Shown in pieces: positions 19,731 through 30,142 of a stretch of 64,000 nt of DNA. A program made the translations under genes and the position numbers. This DNA is from Roseofilum casamattae BLCC-M143 (GTDB lineage Bacteria > Cyanobacteriota > Cyanobacteriia > Cyanobacteriales > Desertifilaceae). The notes below the pieces were generated by a model. That model did not search any database. It was not told the origin of the DNA and saw only the letters and a list, made by a program, of their open reading frames with translations. The stretch's first letter is position 1. Each line of letters begins with the position of its first letter. Location: assembly GCF_030068455.1 (NCBI RefSeq), contig NZ_JAQOSQ010000001.1:434001-498000 (forward strand). The letters run 5' to 3'.

Positions 19731-20096
19731 ATGAATGAATCTCGAAAGCCAGTTGAGTGGATGGGCAGTTGCCGGGAAGATTTAAAAGATTTCCCGGATG
19801 AAGTTCGGAAAGATATTGGTTTTGCGCTGCATCTAGCGCAGTGTGGCGAGAAACATCCATCGGCCAAACCCCTCAAAGGCTTTAAAGGTGCTGGGGTACT
19901 GGAAGTGGTAGAAAATTTTGATGGAGATACTTATCGAACCGTTTATACTTTAAAGTTAGCTGGCGCGATCTATGTCCTTCATGCTTTTCAAAAGAAGTCC
20001 AACAAAGGTATTGCAACACCTAAGCACGATCTCGAGCTAATCGAGAGAAGGTTTAAACGCGCTCAAGAACATCATTCGGAGCATTACATAAGTTAG
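19731..20096 (+). CDS. HigB-like toxin (phage-derived Gp49-like family)
   Basis: 121 residues. The pattern CREDLKDFPDEVRKDIGFAL, then AKPLKGFKGAGVLEVVE, YRTVYTLKLAGAIYVLHAFQ and KKSNKGIATPKHDLELIERR is the Gp49/HigB branch of the RelE superfamily, ribosome-dependent mRNA interferases. The basic C-terminal half with the KKSxKGI motif is kept. The toxin gene precedes its antitoxin by nine bases, the usual order for HigBA-type modules. Regulation is probably by the antitoxin binding its own promoter in the 136-base upstream gap. It appears intact. Confidence 0.87.
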   Translation: MNESRKPVEWMGSCREDLKDFPDEVRKDIGFALHLAQCGEKHPSAKPLKGFKGAGVLEVVENFDGDTYRTVYTLKLAGAIYVLHAFQKKSNKGIATPKHDLELIERRFKRAQEHHSEHYIS

Positions 20097-20105
20097 TAAA
20101 ACACT

Positions 20106-20375
20106 ATGAATCAACCTATCCAAATTCAAACAGGAAGTGGTAATGTTTTTGCCGATTTAGAGTTAGAGAAATCTGAAGAGTTACTGCTTAAGGCAGAACT
20201 TACTCGGAAAATTACCCGCACGATCGCGGATCGAGACATGACTGAAATAGAAGTGGAAAAATTTCTAGAGATTGACCGGTCGAAGGTGTTAGCATTTGTC
20301 AATGGAAAGCTATCTATTTCTTCGACTTTTTCGACAACTGAGTTGTTTCGTTTCTTAAATATATTAGGTCGGTAA
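20106..20375 (+). CDS. HigA-like XRE-family antitoxin
   Basis: 89 residues with a helix-turn-helix of the XRE class in the middle: LTRKITRTIADRDMTEIEVE, then KFLEIDRSKVLAFVNGKL, where canonical members read LG(I/V)(S/D)QPKVSxLxxGK. The C-terminal FSTTELFRFLNILG matches the helix that ends HigA-type antitoxins partnering Gp49-like toxins. It should neutralise the toxin encoded directly upstream and repress the operon. The N-terminus is acidic, typical of the toxin-binding part. Confidence 0.85.
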   Translation: MNQPIQIQTGSGNVFADLELEKSEELLLKAELTRKITRTIADRDMTEIEVEKFLEIDRSKVLAFVNGKLSISSTFSTTELFRFLNILGR

Positions 20376-21436: not shown

Positions 21437-21466
21437 CTTGAGGCTATTTCAGTTGTGAAGGATCTG

Positions 21467-21530
21467 AGAAACCGGGTTTCTTGCTCTACCTCAAATCAAA
21501 AGTTGAATGAGTTAGAGAAACCCGGTTTCT
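21467..21530. repeat. Repeat pair between convergent genes, possible bidirectional terminator
   Basis: Two near-palindromes, AGAAACCGGGTTTCT (21467-21481) and AGAAACCCGGTTTCT (21516-21530), are inverted relative to each other around 34 bases. They fill the gap between the dsRBD-like gene and clpP, which converge here. The same arrangement occurs at 54826-54889, also between convergent genes, suggesting that this dispersed family serves or tolerates transcript ends. Confidence 0.55.
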
Positions 21531-21547
21531 AGCCTCATGAGGTTACG

Positions 21548-22156: not shown

Positions 22157-22252
22157 CGCGTTTTACCCAATCTTTGTAATTTTTTTTGATTGTTACACTT
22201 TTTCTGTACCAATGGGAGTAGCGATATCACCACCACGAGCCGTGAGGGGCCG

Positions 22253-23227
22253 CTAGGGGATTGATTTCTCGGCGATCGCATTTTCGAGCGGCAGAACGAG
22301 ACTGCACCCCCAACGCTTGAATGAATAAGCTTCCTTGGGAAACCAATCATCGGGCCAATCTTGCCAAGGTTGCTCGAGAGGAGATCGGAGAATGTAGACG
22401 CTGCCTGCAGGTACGGCATAACGTCCGCGAGATAAGCGCTTAACTTTCCCTTGTCCTCCAAGCCGATATCGAAATACCTTCGGAGGTGAGGAAAGCATGG
22501 TTTCAATGTCCCAAGCGGGTTGCCATTGCGGACTTTTTGCGATCGCTGGCTCTTGGTAAGATAACCGCCTTGACCCCCAAACCGCAGGAGTAATGAGAGC
22601 AAAACTTTTCCCAGGATATTGATTTAATTGCTGTTGAGTCGCTTCTTCCAGCTCATGGCAACAGAGATTAACAATATGACCTTTTCCGCCAAATCTATAC
22701 CAACCATCGGGTAACTCTAAATTAGCCAGATAAACTATACAGGTATCTTCTTGCATCTGGACGGCATCCTCTCGAAATACGGGGTTGCGCTCTCCATTGA
22801 CATTGAGGGTGCGCTCGTTCTTGTCTAAACAAGCATGGGAGAATGAAGATATAACCCAAGGGTTGGGTTCGGCATATTGGGGGTTATGCCAGTCCTGAAT
22901 GGCAATCCAATAGTTAGAATTGATGGATGGTTTCGGCAAAAACAAGCCCGATCTCGTCTGCCACTGTTGACCGTTCCATGTAGCTCGATCGTCTATCCTT
23001 CTGCTATTAATCACGTAATTAAATGGAGAAGGCACATAAAACCTTTGCGGAGCTTCTTTTTTTGCCCAAAATGGTCCGGAAAGTTGTAGTTCTTTTAAAT
23101 CGTCACCATTATACTCCATTGCATAGATTCCAGAAAGAGTTGGGGTATCTGGCGGAAACTGACTGAGGTTGCTATTGAGTAATCCCAAGAGTTCAATAGT
23201 AATGAGATACTTAAAGTCTAGGGACAT
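22253..23227 (-). CDS. cmr3: Type III-B CRISPR protein Cmr3, shortened near the N-terminus
   Basis: 324 residues matching the cyanobacterial Cmr3 pattern: LSGPFWAKKEAPQRFYVPSP, DTCIVYLANLELPDGWYRFG, KSFALITPAVWGSRRLSY, FRYRLGGQGKVKRLSRGRYA, VPAGSVYILRSPLEQPW and WFPKEAYSFKRWGCSLVLPL. Cmr3 is a Cas5-like RAMP protein that caps the crRNA 5' handle and contacts Cas10 in the Cmr complex. The N-terminal ferredoxin-like strand (YLITIELLGLL, residues 7-17) runs into FPPDTPTLSG (24-33) after only six residues; as I recall the family, an insertion of roughly 20 residues containing a conserved GRFLSPENL-type segment normally lies there. The gene overlaps the Cas10 gene by ten bases, so the two are translated together. 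Cmr1, Cmr4, Cmr5 and Cmr6 are absent. Confidence 0.8.
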   Translation of the reverse strand: MSLDFKYLITIELLGLLNSNLSQFPPDTPTLSGIYAMEYNGDDLKELQLSGPFWAKKEAPQRFYVPSPFNYVINSRRIDDRATWNGQQWQTRSGLFLPKPSINSNYWIAIQDWHNPQYAEPNPWVISSFSHACLDKNERTLNVNGERNPVFREDAVQMQEDTCIVYLANLELPDGWYRFGGKGHIVNLCCHELEEATQQQLNQYPGKSFALITPAVWGSRRLSYQEPAIAKSPQWQPAWDIETMLSSPPKVFRYRLGGQGKVKRLSRGRYAVPAGSVYILRSPLEQPWQDWPDDWFPKEAYSFKRWGCSLVLPLENAIAEKSIP

Positions 23228-24756
23228 AAATGATAACCTACTTTTGATAATTTAATTACCCAATTTGTCAGAGATTGACTGGAACCGTCATCATCTGTTT
23301 GAGGAATTCCCAGAATACCTGTTTTTTGTTCTGTATTCCACAAATGTTCCGCCAAAAGTTTACGGTTATTCTGACCGAAATAAATTTCAAATAGGGCTAA
23401 GGCGACTTTCCCTTCATTGTCAAAGCCATGGCGAGATTCTAATTGAGCAACATCTCGATAAATGTGCGTCCAGTTTTTTCCACCACCGCGATCGCGATAT
23501 CCTTGCAATACCCGAGGAAGAAACCACCAAGGACAAACCCATTCGAGATAATTTCCACTGGAGAATAAGATGCGCAATGCCAGGCGATCGCCTCCTTGCT
23601 GTTTAGCAGATTTTTCGGCAGCAAAACAATGGTGCAGCACATCTTGCTCGGAGGTTTTCGGAGCCGCCCAAACCCATCCAGAACTGAGAGTAATTGGCTG
23701 TTGATGTTGTTTCCAAATACTCTCGTTTGTTGCAGAATTGAATTCGTAGATCCATTGCAGATATCGAGCAGCAGATAACTCTAATGAATTCTGAAAACAA
23801 ACCAAAAAATCATCTCCTCTACCATAGATAAGACTTCCTTGAATCGGATCTAAACTCGGTTCGAGATAATCTGTTGCCCATCGATTGATCCTGCGGCTAA
23901 ATTCGGTGAGGTATTCAGTTTGATCTTCGGCTTGCGCGAGGGATTGGAGAAGGAATGAGTTGACGCGATCGCCATTTCCTTTTAACCAGCCTTTCCAGGA
24001 TTTGCGATCGTTGCGATCGCGGTCTAAACTAGCTGGAAAAACTTTAACCCCAGGAGATAAATAAAGTTCTCGTTTCAGTCGCTGAAACACCGGTTTCTGG
24101 ATAATTAACCGTTGTACGAGTTCGGGAATACTAAGATATTCTCCCTCTTGCACGAAACCATGACCTAGAACATCAACTAGCTCGTTGTAAAATGGCTCAA
24201 TTTCTGCGATTTCTGCATCTGGATCTTCTCCTGGGCGATCGCGATATATATCCATACCATTCCATGCGATCGCATTTATCTTAGAAATAGAAGAACTTTC
24301 TCCTTGCCAATTAATTCCTGTCCAGGGATAAGAGTATTTAGCAATAGTTGTTTTTTTATAGACATCACTAATACTTTCTCCTCGAACGGAAATAACGCTC
24401 AAGCCATGTTTTTCCCATAGCTTCCAAGATTGCTGCCAGCGATATTCTATGGGAATATTATCTTCGATCCAATAACGACAGGTTCGCAGGATTGCTTTCC
24501 AGGTTTCATTGAGGGTAGAAGTAGCGAAATTGCGATCGAGATTGCCCTCAATAATAATCGGCAATGAAGTCCCCCAAATTCCATTATTCTTTGTTGACGA
24601 GATCGCTAAATAACCTAGCTGTTCAGCTCTATGACATAGTTGATTGACGAGCACAGAAATAATAGTCAATTCTCCATATAATTTATGTGTATTTTTAATC
24701 GATTGAATTTGGTCAATCTGCCAAAAATCGATAGCCGTATAAGTACAATATTCCAT
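23218..24756 (-). CDS. cmr2: Cas10/Cmr2-like protein, 512 residues, altered palm motifs
   Basis: The C-terminal half matches cyanobacterial Cas10/Cmr2 clearly: DVLHHCFAAEKSAKQQGGDR, LALRILFSSGNYLEWVCPWW, NWTHIYRDVAQLESRHGF and the end LTNWVIKLSKVGYHLCP. The N-terminal part (KLYGELTIISVLVNQLCHRA, WKAILRTCRYWIEDNIPIEY, YPWTGINWQGESSSISK) is the first palm-like domain. No HD nuclease domain is present. The usual GGDD cyclase motif reads G312-R313-G314-D315-D316, keeping both aspartates but replacing the first glycine with arginine; the GDGD-type motif of the other palm reads GNGD (260-263). Cas10 normally makes cyclic oligoadenylates on target-RNA binding. With these changes, the missing partners and the overlap only with cmr3, activity is uncertain: the protein may be decaying or repurposed. 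Confidence 0.8.
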   Translation of the reverse strand: MEYCTYTAIDFWQIDQIQSIKNTHKLYGELTIISVLVNQLCHRAEQLGYLAISSTKNNGIWGTSLPIIIEGNLDRNFATSTLNETWKAILRTCRYWIEDNIPIEYRWQQSWKLWEKHGLSVISVRGESISDVYKKTTIAKYSYPWTGINWQGESSSISKINAIAWNGMDIYRDRPGEDPDAEIAEIEPFYNELVDVLGHGFVQEGEYLSIPELVQRLIIQKPVFQRLKRELYLSPGVKVFPASLDRDRNDRKSWKGWLKGNGDRVNSFLLQSLAQAEDQTEYLTEFSRRINRWATDYLEPSLDPIQGSLIYGRGDDFLVCFQNSLELSAARYLQWIYEFNSATNESIWKQHQQPITLSSGWVWAAPKTSEQDVLHHCFAAEKSAKQQGGDRLALRILFSSGNYLEWVCPWWFLPRVLQGYRDRGGGKNWTHIYRDVAQLESRHGFDNEGKVALALFEIYFGQNNRKLLAEHLWNTEQKTGILGIPQTDDDGSSQSLTNWVIKLSKVGYHLCP

Positions 24757-24807
24757 TTTCAGATAACTTGTTTTTTAAGCAGTAACTGACTAGAGATCGA
24801 ATATTAA

Positions 24808-24838
24808 ATGTTTCAGCCGTCAAAAACGACTGAAACAT
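24808..24838 (-). terminator. Hairpin upstream of the Cas10 gene
   Basis: ATGTTTCAG (24808-24816) and CTGAAACAT (24830-24838) form a 9-bp stem, extended by CGT/ACG after one mismatch, around CAAAA. On the minus strand it is followed by TTTAATATT and lies about 50 bases before the Cas10 start. It and the hairpin at 24850-24875 probably separate the two small genes from the cas pair, as a terminator pair or attenuator. Confidence 0.4.
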
Positions 24839-24849
24839 CAATAAATAGA

Positions 24850-24875
24850 GGTGCCCTTAAGAGAATTAGGGCACC
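24850..24875 (-). terminator. Hairpin downstream of the 126-residue ORF
   Basis: Perfect 8-bp arms GGTGCCCT (24850-24857) and AGGGCACC (24868-24875) with a 10-base loop. On the minus strand it lies 40 bases past the stop of the small membrane protein gene. The sequence after it is A/T-rich but lacks a continuous T-run. Confidence 0.42.
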
Positions 24876-24914
24876 GATTTTACAAAGCAATGGCAATTAC
24901 CGCTGATGACAGAA

Positions 24915-25295
24915 TCAGAGTTTCAGTATATTCCAAACTAAAATGATTAGGTCTATGATTAGCTTGCCTAAGAAATCAATAGCCTGAATAGCCTGAATAA
25001 CCTGAATAGCCTTTGGGAAGTTCTTGATACAGGACTTCCTAAAAGATCTGTATTGAATCCGCGCAGCTTCATACTTCTGTCTTATCTTTTTAAGTCCCTT
25101 CCTCCGATAGCCATTGAGTTGGCTGGTAATCATTTTGCCAGATTCGATCAGATCGTAGAACCATCGCTCTCCCCATACACTTTGGATGATGGGAATAGCT
25201 AGGCCAACGCAGCTTCGCGTTTCTGGTGGCAGGACAACCACTAGAAATGATACCAGGCACAGAAGTGCTGGTAGAGCAAATTTATTTAGTTTCAT
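24915..25295 (-). CDS. Small predicted membrane protein, unknown function
   Basis: 126 residues, not recognised. An N-terminal hydrophobic segment (FALPALLCLVSFLVVVLP, about 6-23) could be a signal peptide or membrane anchor. A basic middle follows (GYRRKGLKKIRQKYEAARIQ, then YRSFRKSCIKNF), and the C-terminus ends in a second hydrophobic helix (FLGKLIIDLIILVWNIL). At DNA level three tandem 9-base units (AGCCTGAAT-like, 24981-25007) encode the IQAIQA run. The gene lies 20 bases after the preceding small ORF on the same strand and about 160 bases before the Cas10 gene, separated by two hairpins. A basic protein with two hydrophobic ends could be a membrane-active effector or toxin, but nothing proves it. 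Start and reality of the gene are moderately supported. Confidence 0.45.
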   Translation of the reverse strand: MKLNKFALPALLCLVSFLVVVLPPETRSCVGLAIPIIQSVWGERWFYDLIESGKMITSQLNGYRRKGLKKIRQKYEAARIQYRSFRKSCIKNFPKAIQVIQAIQAIDFLGKLIIDLIILVWNILKL

Positions 25296-25315
25296 AGTGC
25301 TGTTATCCCCTACCC

Positions 25316-25618
25316 TTAATTAACTGCTGCAAGTAGGGACACATTTAGCACTAGGATTCGAGTCTCAATAGCATCTCGAAGGTTTACGAGACTAAAGCTA
25401 GGAGCGCGTTTCACCGGAGCTTCAGTAACTTTTGAAACGTCAGAGAATGGAGGTCGATTGTTGTAGGAAGCATACTGAGTCAGGACAGGCTTGGTAGAGG
25501 TTGACTGCCTGAGGTGTGTTTTATTGTCCATTTTGCGATCGAGAGTGAGTTCAGTGATATGAAGGTGAAATTCTTTTGCTCTATCAGTTGAGGAACGCCC
25601 AGGGTCTATGGTTTTCAT
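25316..25618 (-). CDS. Hypothetical small protein
   Basis: 100 residues, not recognised. It is polar, Ser/Thr-rich and probably disordered for the first 75 residues (MDNKTHLRQSTSTKPVLTQY occurs at about 30-49, and its Met could be an alternative start at 25531). The C-terminus is more hydrophobic (LRDAIETRILVLNVSLLAAV). It precedes the 126-residue ORF by 20 bases, so the two probably form one transcript running toward the cas pair. The predicted ribosome-binding site (AAGAG before ATG) is weak. It could be a small secreted or modified peptide precursor or a spurious frame; no family motif supports either. Confidence 0.35.
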   Translation of the reverse strand: MKTIDPGRSSTDRAKEFHLHITELTLDRKMDNKTHLRQSTSTKPVLTQYASYNNRPPFSDVSKVTEAPVKRAPSFSLVNLRDAIETRILVLNVSLLAAVN

Positions 25619-25702
25619 ACTCTTAGTTTTTAGCTAGTGTGACTGCTACTATTAGCTTAACTAATATAGTGTAGAAACGTCAAACTCACTAGATTTCAGC
25701 TC

Positions 25703-25732
25703 TTGAGACCAAGCAGCTTGCTAGTGTATGAT
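25703..25732 (+). promoter_or_regulatory. Predicted sigma70-type promoter
   Basis: TTGAGA (25703-25708) and TATGAT (25727-25732) are separated by 18 bases, close to the consensus -35/-10 layout. Transcription would start near 25739 and run straight into the paired hairpins at 25746-25802. It is the best-looking promoter in the 500-base gap before the FHA-CHAT gene. Confidence 0.45.
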
Positions 25733-25745
25733 AGTGGTAATCCCG

Positions 25746-25802
25746 CCAACTGGGTGAAGTTGGTTTGTTGACAACACAGTTAGTATAAAGGCCAACTTTT
25801 TT
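25746..25802 (+). ncRNA. Possible attenuator or terminated small RNA
   Basis: Two mutually exclusive hairpins share one arm. CCAACT (25746-25751) can pair with AGTTGG (25758-25763) around GGGTGA. Alternatively AAGTTGG (25757-25763) pairs with CCAACTT (25792-25798), directly followed by T residues to 25802, the form of an intrinsic terminator with a 28-base loop. A good promoter lies just upstream, giving a transcript of about 62 bases if terminated. Read-through would continue about 320 bases to the FHA-CHAT start. A further inverted repeat, AGGAGC/GCTCCT (25811-25846), follows. No known riboswitch class is recognised. Confidence 0.35.
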
Positions 25803-26119
25803 GCTCTGCCAGGAGCTGTTAGCAGCTTTTGCTACTGATGGCTCCTCGATCGCCTTTTCCAGTCCCAACTACGATCGCCCCACTGCCATCATAGATTGCT
25901 TAACAATAAGTCATTTTGCTACAGCACCCCAGCCGCCACAGTCCCAGTGAGTAAATGCTATCTTAAGAATTGGGACATCACTTAAGCCAAAATACACCAC
26001 AGGGCCATAATCTCCTCTCTGATGCGATCCAAATGCTGTAGGGCAGTCTAGCCACTGAACCATGCCAGGATTGCCCCTTGTTGATTCAACTGACTCTTCC
26101 TCCATCCTGAAACAAAGCT

Positions 26120-29100
26120 ATGGCTTCATCATCAACTCGCCTGCCTTCAGGTTCTGCCCTCTTCTGGTTCTCTCTTTTCCCTTGCTTAGCTTGGTTGGGA
26201 ACTCTTCCAGCCTCGGCTCAACCCATGCCTATCGTTCCAGCGGCAGATGGGACGGGAACTCAAGTTATTCCTATGGGCAACCAATACCAAATTACTGGCG
26301 GACAGTTATCTGGAGATGGAGCCAACCTCTTCCATAGCTTTACTCAGTTCGGACTCTCTCCCGCACAAATTGCTAATTTTCTCGCTACTCCCAACATTGA
26401 GAATATTCTCGGGCGCATTAATGGCGGAGATCCTTCGATTATTAATGGACTGTTGCAAGTGAGCGGTGGTAATTCTAACTTGTATTTAGTTAATCCTGCT
26501 GGCATTCTCTTCGGTCCCGATGCTCGTTTAGATGTGCCTGCTGCCTTTAATGCGAGTACTGCTACAGCTATTGGGTTCGATGGAACCAATGGAACCACAA
26601 ACTGGTTTGATGCGTTTGGCTCGAATGATTATAGTTCGTTGGTGGGTACGCCAACTGCCTTTCAATTTAGTGCAACCTCTAGCGGCCAAATTGTCAACTT
26701 GGGGAATTTAACTGTTTCTGAGGGGGAAAGCTTAACCTTACTCGGTGCTTCGGCGATGAGTGCGGGAGAACTAACCGCTCCTGGAGGAACCATTACTCTC
26801 ATGGCAGTTCCCGGAGAGCAGCGCGTCAGAATTTCTCAACCCGGCCATTTATTAAGCTTAGAACTTCCGTTGCAGGCTGGGACGCCCGGTACTATTGGAC
26901 TGACATCTGCCAATATAGTCGATCTACTTGCTTATTCTGGTATTAATGGTGGCGCGCAACTAGCCGTTAACGAGCAAGGAGAGATCGCGATCGCCGGTTC
27001 TGGATTTATTCTGCCACAACAGGCTGGAGTTGCGATCGCCTCGGGAACCGTAGATGTTTCCACAACTGACCCCACCGCGTCTGCTGGAACCATAAATCTT
27101 TTCGGCGAACACGTAGGAGTTATCGACGCTCGCCTCAATGCTGCAAGTCCCTCTCAAGGCGGCGTTATCAGGGTTGGTGGAGGACTTCGAGGTGAAGAAC
27201 CTTTCCCGAATGCTGCTCATACTCTTGTTGATGCTCAATCTCTCATTCAAGCCAACAGCACTGACTATGGAGACGGCGGCCAAATTCTCATTTGGTCGGA
27301 TCGACTCACTCAGTTTCAGGGCACAGTGACAGCAACCGGCGGGCCAACCTCTGGTCATGGTGGCTTTGTGGAAGTATCTAGTGGCGATCGATTGCATTTT
27401 CACGGAAAGGTTGATGTTAGTGCAGTCAATGGGGACTGGGGAACTCTATTGCTCGACCCAAAGAATATTACGATTTCTGAAGAACAAACTCCTTTGATTC
27501 CCGCCGTTGCATTTGCTGTCACCGGTTCGATCGTGCAAGGCTTTCTTGAGGAAGATGATGTGACCTTGAATACCGGTCTGTTAGAGCAACAAAAGGGTAA
27601 TATTTTCCTGGAAGCGACGAACAATATTACGATCGCGGACGGTATTTCACTCAATTTCGTTCCAGGCAACGGCTCGATCTCCTTTATTGCTGATGGAGAT
27701 AACAGTGGCACTGGCTCGTTTCAGATGGACTCAACAGCTTCCATTAATACATCAGGACGGTCTCTACAAATCTCTGCGGCAAGTATTACAGCCGGTACAT
27801 TAAATACCAGCGGTAATAATAGTGCTGGAAATGTCGTGTTGAGTGCTACAACTGGAGCGATCGCGACAGAGTCCATTTTAACCGGAATGGAGAATGGCAA
27901 TGGCGGTAATATTTCGCTTTCTACTAATGGTGGAGATATTACAACGGGTAATCTTTGGTCTGGGGTCGAACAATCTGGAAATGGAGGCGATATTTCCCTC
28001 ACCATTAATGGCGGGAGCGGTAATATTGATACGACGGCAGGTAGTGTTATCTCTGCGGTAACTGATGGGAATGGTGGCGATATTACCTTGAAAATTAATG
28101 AGGGAAGTGGGGCGATCGCTATCGGTACTTTAGAGGCACTCTCTCAAAATGGCAATCCCGGCATAATTACTATCGATCCACTGACTGTACCAACTCCAGC
28201 GCCTACACCAGCACCGACTCCAACTCCAGCGCCAGCACCGACTCCAACTCCAGCGCCAGCACCAACCCCAACTCCAACGCCTACGCCAGCACCGACTCCA
28301 ACTCCAGCGCCTACGCCAGCACCGACTCCAACCCCAGCGCCAGCTCCAGCACCGACTCCAACCCCAGCGCCTACGCCAGCACCGACTCCAACCCCAGCGC
28401 CTACGCCAGCACCGACTCCAACCCCAGCGCCAGCTCCAGCACCGACTCCAACCCCAGCTCCGGCACCAGTCCTAACTCCATTTCCGACTCCCGTACCAGA
28501 AGTGACGATAGAACCCGAAATAGCTCCTCCGACTCCAGTTTCCACCCCAGAACCAACTCCAGAGACCGAGCTATCAGGTATTGAGTTAGACTCCAATTTC
28601 GACACAACAAGCAGAGCAAATTCTCTGGAACCACAGCTCCATACCAATTCTGAATTACCTCAATTGCAGATAGAAACGCCAGAGAAATCTGCGACTTCTG
28701 AGGTTGCAATTGCCGTTTCTTCAAGCACAGTTCCCACTCTGTTCGGTATAGCATCTACTGAGTTCTTTTCTCCAGAATTTTCTCCCTCGATTGGAGCGGA
28801 AGAGACAGAAACATCCGATTCAGAATCCGATGGAAAAGAAAGCGCGCTCAATGGGGCGATCGCGCTTTCTATCCAGCAGTTTAATGCCATAGTGCAGCAA
28901 CGAGAAGAGTTGATTCGGCAAGAATATGCCAGTTATTTAGGATTAGAAGTACAACCAACATCGAGGGATTCTGTTGAAAAAATACAAGCAGAATTGAGTG
29001 CAATTGCAGAGGAAACGAGGATAAATACAGCCATTGTTTATCTGGGATTTTCGGTAACGAGTCCTATAGCATCCAAACAGGAAAAATCGAAGGAATTAGG

Positions 29101-30142
29101 CGATCGCTATTTGGAGATTATGATGGTGACGGCTGAAGGAAAACCCTTTCGCAAGCTTATCTCCGGCGCTACCCAAGAAAAAGTACTCGAACGAGTTACT
29201 GCTTTAAACTTAGAATTAACCAATCCGAGACGGCGATATACTCAAAGTTATTTGCCGATGGCGCAAGAGTTATATCGTTGGGCGATCGCGCCCTTACAAG
29301 CAGAATTGGAGCAGCAAAAAATTACTCATTTAAGCTTTGTTTTAGAGGAAGGATTGCGATCGCTACCGATGGCAGCTCTTCATGATGGCGATCGCTTTTT
29401 AGTTGAAGACTATAGTTTGGGAGTCATGCCCAGTTTCTCCTTAACCAACCGACAGCCTTCTCGCCTGCAGAACGGTCAAGTTTTAGCCATGGGAGCCTCT
29501 CAATTCTCCAATCTGTCTCCCTTACCTGCCGTGCCTATTGAACTGAGAACAATCGCGCAAAAATGGAATGGTCGAGAATTTCTTGATGACGATTTTACTT
29601 TAGCAAATTTACAATCCATTCGTCAGCAACATGATTACCCAATTCTGCATTTCGCGACTCATGGAGAATTCCTTCCGGGAAGTCCCGATCGCTCTTATAT
29701 TCAATTATGGGATGGTCAATTAACCTTAAGTGAATTGGATCGGTTGGGACTAGACGATTCCATCGTAGAATTATTAGTATTAAGTGCCTGTCGCACGGCA
29801 TTAGGCGATCGCGATGCCGAATTAGGATTTACTGGATTAGCGGTGAAAGCTGGAGTAAAATCTGCATTGGGCAGTTTATGGCATGTTAGCGATGAAGGCA
29901 CCTTGGCGTTGATGAGCGAGTTTTATGCCATGCTCAAGAGCGCGCCGATGAAAGCGAAAGCCTTGCAACGCGCTCAAATTGCTATGCTCAAAGGTGAAGT
30001 AACCGTTCGCAACGGACAGTTAATCGTTCCGGGTTTGGAAACCCCTATTCCTTTACCAGAAGGCTTACAAGAGTTGGATAATGAAGTTCTCAATCATCCC
30101 TATTTTTGGTCGGGATTTACCTTAATTGGTTCTCCTTGGTAA
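26120..30142 (+). CDS. FHA/TPS-domain protein fused to a CHAT domain
   Basis: 1340 residues. A signal peptide ([20 protein letters not shown]) is followed by a two-partner-secretion haemagglutination domain (about 35-290: [60 protein letters not shown]). A beta-helix-type region (to about 690) carries GNGGDI-like units. A Pro-rich linker of APTPTP repeats fills about 690-790 (DNA 28188-28470). After a variable segment, the C-terminus (about 990-1340) is a CHAT domain with His1181 in HFATHGEF and Cys1224 in [10 protein letters not shown]. The TPS domain implies export through an outer-membrane TpsB porin, which would place a caspase-like domain at or outside the cell surface. No TpsB gene is in the window. 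Autoproteolysis or target cleavage is inference. Confidence 0.9.

What the first reader, a model, noticed from the sequence alone, without database searches (positions are those of the whole stretch)
22253..24756. Isolated Cas10-Cmr3 pair without the rest of the Cmr complex
Two overlapping genes (10 bases) match cyanobacterial Cmr2/Cas10 and Cmr3, but Cmr1, Cmr4, Cmr5, Cmr6, Cas6 and an adaptation module are all absent within at least 20 kb on either side. Cas10 and Cmr3 form the head of the type III-B complex and need the Cmr4 backbone to bind target RNA. An intact two-gene head without a backbone is either decaying, supplied in trans, or a minimal module with a new role. Both frames are open over 300-500 residues, which argues against old decay.
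Basis: partly seen in the sequence, partly recalled or inferred. Interest (0 to 1): 0.85.

Follow-up and report, generated by a model that had tools for sequence, protein, structure and literature searches.

The report
Inactivated CRISPR head with lone repeat
A cyanobacterium carries, far from its apparently working CRISPR complex, a spare copy of that complex's two-protein head that looks enzymatically dead, together with a single leftover CRISPR repeat; selection has kept it, which suggests a decoy or regulatory part rather than a broken gene.

Summary
The pair is real: a type III-B Cas10 (512 aa) and Cmr3 (324 aa) overlapping by 10 bases, with no other cas gene found in the window. It is not an intact head. 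It belongs to a small paralogous clade (three copies found) that lost the Palm1 motif, a conserved Palm2 aspartate, the GGDD glycine and a Cmr3 loop, yet keeps its fold, its conserved C-terminal residues and purifying selection. The genome (Roseofilum) holds a III-B locus on another contig, with a normal head plus a second dead head inserted before cmr4. Window 22207-26117 is absent from 4 of 4 sister genomes spanning the site. It also carries one solitary CRISPR repeat with a covarying hairpin and a small membrane-protein ORF; the other two copies share this layout. A separately derived dead pair (Nostoc S4) also has one such repeat, with a Phd/ParE pair in between. Heads in this lineage are exchangeable: backbones 85-87% identical carry heads 43-53% identical, and genome G164 splits an intact head from its backbone. 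Best reading: a catalytically dead alternative (decoy or regulatory) head for a backbone supplied in trans; the mechanism is inferred (0.45). New variant of a known kind.

The parts
23218..24756 (-). Cas10-Psi (III-B Cas10/Cmr2 paralogue with lost catalytic motifs, 512 aa)
22253..23227 (-). Cmr3-Psi (324 aa, lacks the N-terminal SPENLVGRSG-type loop)
25740..25775 (-). solitary CRISPR repeat (36 nt), 29 of 36 positions identical to the array repeat of III-B loci of relatives; 6-bp hairpin kept with a compensatory change
24915..25295 (-). 126-aa ORF with two hydrophobic segments between repeat and cas10 (putative small membrane protein; coding status inferred)
   Evidence: no family match
25316..25618 (-). 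100-aa ORF just upstream of the membrane ORF; begins MKTIDPG, and a 95-aa ORF of the G222 cassette begins MKLIDPG (weak, possibly chance)
22207..26117 (.). extra segment of about 3.9 kb between clpP and the CHAT/TPS gene, absent from sister genomes (limits good to some tens of bases)

Best explanation
Shown: window 22207-26117 is an extra cassette holding one III-B-type CRISPR repeat, a small membrane-protein-like ORF and an overlapping cas10-cmr3 pair whose catalytic and signature residues are lost but whose fold and conserved C-terminal residues are kept under purifying selection. Inferred: the two proteins still form a Cas10-Cmr3 head that can cap the Cmr4-Cmr5 filament encoded in trans on contig C2, giving a complex that makes no cyclic oligoadenylate. 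It acts as a non-signalling alternative head: a decoy or brake that competes with the active head (pair A), perhaps loaded with a crRNA-like RNA made from the solitary repeat. The neighbouring small membrane protein would be an addiction or effector partner of the cassette. Who profits (the cell, damping autoimmunity; or the cassette itself, as a selfish anti-CRISPR-like unit) is open.
For: (1) Residue pattern: of 138 Cas10 columns conserved in >=90% of 100 canonical sequences, window/B/G222 lost 45/43/46 (canonical median 3, 95th percentile 9, max 29); none of the 23 columns from residue 401 on is lost in any of the three. The first Asp of GDGD is lost in 4 of 4 dead heads, including the separately derived Nostoc S4 one. 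(2) Selection: dN/dS Cas10 0.29-0.36, Cmr3 0.19-0.21; a neutral simulation over half the path gave 8 or more stops in each of 500 runs, observed none. (3) Trans backbone: III-B loci lie elsewhere in G000 and G222 (L158); the Nostoc S4 genome G388 has two more Cas10 places each near a RAMP-family gene (C84, C104). (4) Heads are exchangeable: G000 and G004 backbones are 85-87% identical (Cmr4, Cmr5, Cmr6-type) but their heads 53% (Cas10) and 43% (Cmr3). In G164 the only Cas10 of this family and its Cmr3 (intact motifs) sit on contig C58, while the genome's only RAMP-family match, its Cmr4, heads a Cmr4-Cmr5-Cmr6-type operon on C4, behind a Psi-like Cmr3 fragment (70-71% to window/B over 83-88 aa, 59% to A). 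(5) The repeat is kept with a covarying hairpin at a similar position in 4 of 4 dead heads. (6) Precedent: AcrIB3 is a Cas5 mimic that displaces native Cas5 (PMC13131331, passages).
Against: No physical or expression data. Cmr3-Psi lacks a loop conserved in its family, and Cmr3 proteins contact the crRNA 5' tag (PMC7192623, passage), so docking on a crRNA-loaded backbone may fail; that this loop binds the tag, and that the Cas10 C-terminal domain docks on Cmr5, is recalled or assumed, not tested. By count Cmr3-Psi is not clearly outside its family: B and G222 lost 15 and 17 of 94 columns, inside the canonical 95th percentile of 20 (window 27, equal to the canonical maximum). The solitary repeat does not match the one array found in G000 (I-D type). 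No target was found for the stretch after the repeat. A simple promoter scan found none at the repeat on its strand, and repeat-bearing RNAs do not fold better than shuffles. Cas10-Psi is relaxed over Palm1, linker and Palm2 (omega up to 0.76 in residues 171-256), and its C-terminal omega (0.09-0.31) is no lower than in canonical pairs (0.26-0.31) except in one comparison. The G222 row is long and odd in composition in the tree. Only three clade members plus one separate case are known, from three genomes.
Confidence: 0.45

Rival explanations
1. Guard or toxin-antitoxin-like module: the small membrane ORF (ParE in the Nostoc case) is a toxic effector kept silent by the Cas10-Psi/Cmr3-Psi ribonucleoprotein or by the repeat RNA; loss of CRISPR components, or phage action, releases it (CreTA- or Panoptes-like logic with new parts).
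For: A same-strand multi-TM ORF of 98-127 aa lies between repeat and cas10 in 3 of 3 Psi cassettes; ORFs with >=2 TM arose in 2, 0 and 1 of 600 shuffles (the criterion was set after seeing the ORFs). In Nostoc S4 the same interval holds PhdYefM (32.9 bits, cut-off 29.8) and ParE (41 bits, cut-off 23). CreTA uses one or two degenerate ectopic repeats (PMC9458426, passages); Panoptes pairs a Cas10-like mCpol with a TM effector (PMC12657230, abstract).
Against: The membrane ORFs show no detectable sequence similarity to each other and only weak coding statistics. No complementarity between the stretch after the repeat and the sampled loci. The catalytic residues that a Panoptes-like cyclase would need are lost. 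TA pairs may sit anywhere by chance.
Confidence: 0.22
2. Slowly decaying relic of a III-B locus (array, cas10, cmr3) that lost its backbone and all but one repeat; no present function.
For: Repeat type and tree place the ancestor among III-B loci with arrays directly upstream of cas10. Cas10-Psi is relaxed relative to canonical Cas10. Relics exist: G612 has a Cas10 and a Cmr3 each in two frames and no RAMP match in a 96% complete genome, and G164 has a Psi-like Cmr3 fragment.
Against: Both frames are open in three diverged copies (dS about 0.9-1.8) with dN/dS 0.19-0.36; neutral simulation gives 18.5 stops on average. All 23 conserved C-terminal columns are kept. Compensatory change in the repeat hairpin. 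Residue loss concentrates in signature and active-site motifs.
Confidence: 0.2
3. Autonomous two-subunit protein with a new role (for example an RNA- or nucleotide-binding regulator of its neighbours) that no longer meets any Cmr backbone.
For: Isolated also by position in G222 and Nostoc S4; loss of the conserved Cmr3 loop.
Against: Copy B sits directly before cmr4 inside the resident III-B locus; the conserved C-terminal residues are those of the canonical head; neighbours differ at each site.
Confidence: 0.13

Closest known systems
Canonical cyanobacterial III-B head (Cas10-Cmr3) with Cmr4, Cmr5 and a Cmr6-type RAMP
   Same: Gene order, short overlap, fold, conserved C-terminal residues; array of the same repeat type directly upstream of cas10 in L035, L054, L160
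   Different: No backbone beside it, one repeat instead of an array, catalytic and signature residues lost
[quoted passage not shown]
   Same: Palm catalytic residues replaced (PMC12669027, passages)
   Different: Those are effector operons of their own; here a lone head, paralogous to active III-B Cas10, in a genome with an intact-looking III-B locus
Racr / solitary repeat units
   Same: One CRISPR-repeat mimic outside arrays (PMC10651486, passages)
   Different: Racr units are described from viruses and plasmids and as not associated with cas genes; here chromosomal and beside cas genes, no exact match in viral contigs
Cas-homologue anti-CRISPRs (AcrIB3, AcrIB4)
   Same: Cas subunit homologue that could displace the native subunit (PMC13131331, passages)
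   Different: Not on a recognised mobile element; two subunits; inhibition untested
CreTA
   Same: Degenerate ectopic repeat near a possible toxin and cas genes (PMC9458426, passages)
   Different: No target complementarity found; CreT is an RNA; CreTA works through Cascade
Panoptes (mCpol-2TMbeta)
   Same: Cas10-like protein beside a small membrane protein (PMC12657230, abstract)
   Different: mCpol is an active cyclase; Pfam mCpol match here only E 0.23

Membership tests
type III-B Cas10/Cmr2 | profile and fold similarity over the whole length | tested here: met
   PADLOC Cas10b 5e-122; Foldseek 3ur3 3.8e-12; tree of 104 Cas10
type III-B Cas10/Cmr2 | active Palm2 (GDGD Asp and GGDD) | tested here: not met
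   GDGD to GNGD, GGDD to RGDD
type III-B Cas10/Cmr2 | Palm1 motif PVQxFIExSRKLRDL | tested here: not met
Cmr3 | Cmr3 profile and fold | tested here: met
   Pfam 21.3 bits (cut-off 21), PADLOC 5e-11, Foldseek 9x25_C 4.1e-10; NCBIfam cut-off not reached
Cmr3 | conserved N-terminal GSAGxFLSPENLVGRSG loop | tested here: not met
   deleted in the window copy, replaced in B and G222
complete III-B effector complex | Cmr4, Cmr5, Cmr6/Cmr1 in the same operon | tested here: not met
   none in the window; Cmr4, Cmr5 and a Cmr6-type RAMP on contig C2
complete III-B effector complex | physical assembly of this head with the backbone | not testable with these tools
   needs pull-down or co-structure
Racr / solitary repeat unit | single CRISPR repeat outside an array | tested here: met
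   29 of 36 identities, 0 of 2000 mononucleotide shuffles; one copy in the window on that strand; no other within 3 mismatches in the genome (copy B escapes this by its 2-nt insertion)
Racr / solitary repeat unit | encoded by virus or plasmid | tested here: inconclusive
   two exact-pattern viral scans without match; the cassette is an insertion, but no mobility gene was seen by eye
Racr / solitary repeat unit | promoter directly upstream of the repeat | tested here: inconclusive
   consensus scan finds none on its strand; a TATACT hexamer lies just upstream by eye
CreTA | crRNA-like guide complementary to the toxin promoter | tested here: inconclusive
   window, L002 and L183 searched; one of six scores for the window copy exceeded 40 of 40 shuffles and was not pursued; whole genome not scanned
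Cas-mimic anti-CRISPR | inhibits the native complex by subunit replacement | not testable with these tools
   inferred only
Panoptes | catalytically active mCpol | tested here: not met

The most novel reading that the evidence does not exclude
A new kind of movable CRISPR accessory cassette: one CRISPR repeat making a crRNA-like RNA, a small membrane toxin or effector, and a dead Cas10-Cmr3 head that together plug into a resident III-B backbone, as an RNA-guided brake or addiction module for type III immunity; it arose at least twice (the Psi clade and Nostoc S4).
Probability: 0.2. Interest if true: 0.92.

Novelty: new variant of a known kind. Interest (0 to 1): 0.68.

Why it matters
About 97% of Cas10s are predicted to be active (PMC12669027, passage), and isolated heads are rare here: 7 of 131 pairs with >=3 kb of visible downstream sequence lack a backbone there (one search lists ten; I set aside L068 and L098, whose Cmr4 lies further on, and pair A of L002, cut off by the inserted dead head). 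A dead head kept in a genome with a live-looking system, with its own repeat, would show how type III signalling can be tuned or hijacked by subunit exchange. The natural head/backbone split in G164 and the head swap between G000 and G004 make subunit exchange directly testable.

Tried and rejected
Homology of the small membrane ORFs: window and C2 copies give no BLASTP alignment; tblastn with all three finds only self and a few chance-level pieces; they are argued from position and hydropathy only. A target for the stretch after the repeat: 24 comparisons, one (window copy against the window's + strand) above all 40 shuffles, which is about what 24 tests can give; not pursued. Rfam: nothing at gathering threshold in window and L002. 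First genome and viral scans with the two-row alignment A1 used poor patterns and found nothing; the second genome scan with A2 gave 188 relatives, of which the tool kept 80. Phage collection: no match; plasmids: 8 records, all <60% identical. A fuzzy-regex scan timed out and was replaced by blastn. Class-wide and family-of-G222 searches listed no match between the known Psi members and canonical scores; but motifs were read only for the loci fetched, so a separately derived dead head like that of Nostoc S4 could sit among the unread hits. Terminal repeats or a transposase at the cassette ends were looked for by eye only; none seen.
Full report
Observation. Two overlapping minus-strand ORFs at 22253-23227 and 23218-24756 are a III-B Cmr3 and Cas10. 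AlphaFold models are confident (pLDDT 89.2 and 87.5), and Foldseek puts solved III-B Cmr3 and Cmr2 chains first. No other cas protein was found among the window ORFs. The window is G000:C1:434001-498000. Genus-mate G004 has a contig of the same length (46615) holding the same locus as a contig of Roseofilum acuticapitatum BLCC-M154, so the genus is Roseofilum by inference.

The rest of the genome. Contig C2 (L002) holds a III-B locus: Cas10 A (599 aa, GGDD) - Cmr3 A - Cas10 B (515 aa) - Cmr3 B - Cmr4 - Cmr5 - [PIN protein on the other strand] - a 560-aa Cmr6-type RAMP - CARF-HEPN - CARF. My scripts call the 560-aa RAMP Cmr6_1, on the assumption that it also covers Cmr1; only Cmr6 profiles were hit. 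Pair B is the nearest relative of the window pair C: 55% identity for Cas10, 64% for Cmr3. The genome also has a I-D system (Cas3d, Cas10d, Cas7d, Cas5d, Cas6, Cas4, Cas1) with a 21-repeat array of unrelated repeat, beyond the window end. No array was found in C2:5000-60000 around the III-B locus.

The heads B and C look dead. Against 100 canonical cyanobacterial Cas10s, 138 columns are >=90% conserved. C, B and the G222 homologue lost 45, 43 and 46 of these, 27 in all three; canonical sequences lose 3 at the median, 9 at the 95th percentile, 29 at most; Nostoc S4 lost 12. Lost are the Palm1 motif (PVQxFIExSRK), the first Asp of GDGD, the first Gly of GGDD, and WEFF and PQRDxLQH positions. All 23 conserved columns from residue 401 to the end are kept in all three. 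In Cmr3 the conserved N-terminal loop is deleted (C) or replaced (B, G222), while the C-terminal RLSRGRYAVPAGSVY block is largely kept. By count Cmr3 is less clear: 27, 15 and 17 of 94 columns lost, against a canonical 95th percentile of 20 and maximum of 27. That Palm1 and Palm2 form the cyclase, which Asp binds metal, and that the Cas10 C-terminal domain touches Cmr5 is recalled knowledge; that Cmr3 contacts the 5' tag and that GGDD is needed for cOA comes from passages of PMC7192623.

They are kept. NG86 dN/dS: Cas10 C-B 0.35, C-G222 0.29, B-G222 0.36; four canonical Cas10 comparisons 0.10-0.18; Cmr3 0.19-0.21 against 0.16-0.17 in two canonical comparisons. By region, residues 171-256 are weakly constrained (0.56-0.76) and residues 399-512 give 0.09-0.31; two canonical controls reach 0.26 and 0.31 in that last region, so its constraint is normal, not special. 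A neutral simulation over half the C-B distance gives 18.5 stops on average and none of 500 runs without a stop.

Family. A quick-method tree of 104 Cas10s puts C, B and G222 in one clade (SH-aLRT 100, stem 0.73; C with B 90). The G222 row was flagged as long and odd in composition, so long-branch attraction within this clade is possible. A fourth dead, isolated pair, Nostoc sp. S4 (L055; GNGD and GGDN), is separate, sister to canonical Iningainema L054 (93), so the state probably arose at least twice. Its dN/dS to L054 is 0.19 for Cas10 and 0.20 for Cmr3.

Cassette. In 4 of 4 sister genomes that span the site (G001, G002, G004, G005; in G003 the contig ends) clpP is followed directly by the CHAT gene; window 22207-26117 is extra. 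Copy B lies in an insertion of similar size between cmr3 A and cmr4: in G222 that gap in homology is 188 nt, here about 4.1 kb. Upstream of all four dead heads, same strand, about 0.85-1.2 kb before cas10, lies one copy of a CRISPR repeat. It is the array repeat found beside III-B operons with Cmr4 (L035, L054, L160, L056) and beside a pair at a contig end (L034). The window copy matches 29 of 36 positions; G222 and S4 match 32; B matches 24 without gaps because of a 2-nt insertion; 0 of 2000 mononucleotide shuffles reach any of these. On nine repeats (four solitary, five from arrays) the hairpin has changes on both sides at 2 of 6 pairs; 0 of 500 shuffles reach the covariation score, though 33 of 500 reach the number of pairs changed on both sides. 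The folds are not more stable than shuffles for the solitary repeats.

Between repeat and cas10. The three Psi cassettes each have a same-strand ORF of 98-127 aa with 2-3 hydrophobic segments; such ORFs (>=2 TM) appear in 2, 0 and 1 of 600 shuffles, a test chosen after seeing them. They are not detectably alike, and codon statistics are weak. Nostoc S4 has PhdYefM and ParE there.

How rare. Genomes with a match at E <= 0.001 to the window Cas10, the own genome counted: 24 of 99 relatives, 121 of 388 genomes of the order, 93 of 388 of the class, 10 of 14 of the G222 family; these sets overlap, and canonical Cas10s match too. Among 131 distinct Cas10-Cmr3 pairs with >=3 kb visible downstream, 10 lack Cmr4 within 3 kb; 18 more could not be judged. 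Of these ten, two (L068, L098) have Cmr4 further on, and one is pair A itself, cut off by cassette B. The seven isolated ones are the window, G222 and Nostoc S4 (dead), L165, L240 and L249 (motif strings intact) and L284 (broken frames, in a genome without any RAMP match). So isolation alone is not tied to a dead head. Of 80 further loci read had Cmr4 in the stretch and all three motif strings; 7 were flagged: L240 and L249 (isolated), L250 (contig edge), L284, L247 and L264 (extra or split frames), and L262 (no exact GDGD string, not looked into). None of the 80 had the repeat core.

Heads move against backbones. G004 against G000: Cmr4 87%, Cmr5 85%, Cmr6-type 86%, but Cas10 53% and Cmr3 43%. 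In G164 the head (intact motif strings) is on C58, and Cmr4-Cmr5-Cmr6-type-CARF on C4 behind a Psi-like Cmr3 remnant (70-71% to C/B over 83-88 aa, 59% to A); it is the only RAMP match and the only Cas10 of this family in that genome. So a head encoded apart from its backbone is not hypothetical in this lineage, although function was not shown.

Interpretation. I commit to a non-signalling alternative head on the backbone supplied in trans (0.45): a decoy or brake. The repeat RNA and the membrane protein are possible partners, not shown. Rivals are a guard module (0.22), a relic (0.20) and an autonomous new role (0.13).

Literature. Nine searches of the open library listed no title or abstract start describing isolated dead Cas10-Cmr3 pairs with a solitary repeat. 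I saw passages of PMC9676260, PMC9458426, PMC10651486, PMC13131331, PMC12669027, PMC7192623 and PMC8682760, and the abstract and start of PMC12657230. Subscription journals are mostly not covered.

Noticed in passing
L292 6607-12175 and L294 4480-8021 (genome G164): A naturally split III-B system: Cas10-Cmr3 with intact motif strings on one contig, Cmr4-Cmr5-Cmr6-type-CARF on another behind a remnant of a dead-type Cmr3.
   Followed up: partly
L036 against L002: Head swap within the genus: backbone 85-87% identical, Cas10 53% and Cmr3 43%.
   Followed up: partly
L165 (178-kb contig of G281, same length as plasmid record CP150887.1): Isolated Cas10-Cmr3 with intact motif strings beside ORFs that look by eye like E2, E1-JAB and Cas2 proteins (no profile search done).
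   Followed up: no
window 21453-21545: An intergenic repeat of about 75-90 nt beside clpP, with some 40 similar places listed across G000 and two in sister genome G005.
   Followed up: no
window 26120-30142: Protein of 1340 aa with an N-terminal TPS secretion domain, a Pro-Ala-Thr-rich middle and a C-terminal CHAT domain.
   Followed up: no
window 19731-20375: Gp49-like protein plus HTH_37 protein (probable toxin-antitoxin pair) about 1.8 kb before the insertion.
   Followed up: no
L284 4705-7385 (genome G612): Cas10 and Cmr3 each split over two frames in a genome without any RAMP match: what real decay of such a pair may look like.
   Followed up: partly
L002 7772-8215: PIN-domain (VapC-like) gene antisense within the cmr operon of G000, also antisense in G164 (L292 8429-8872).
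   Followed up: no
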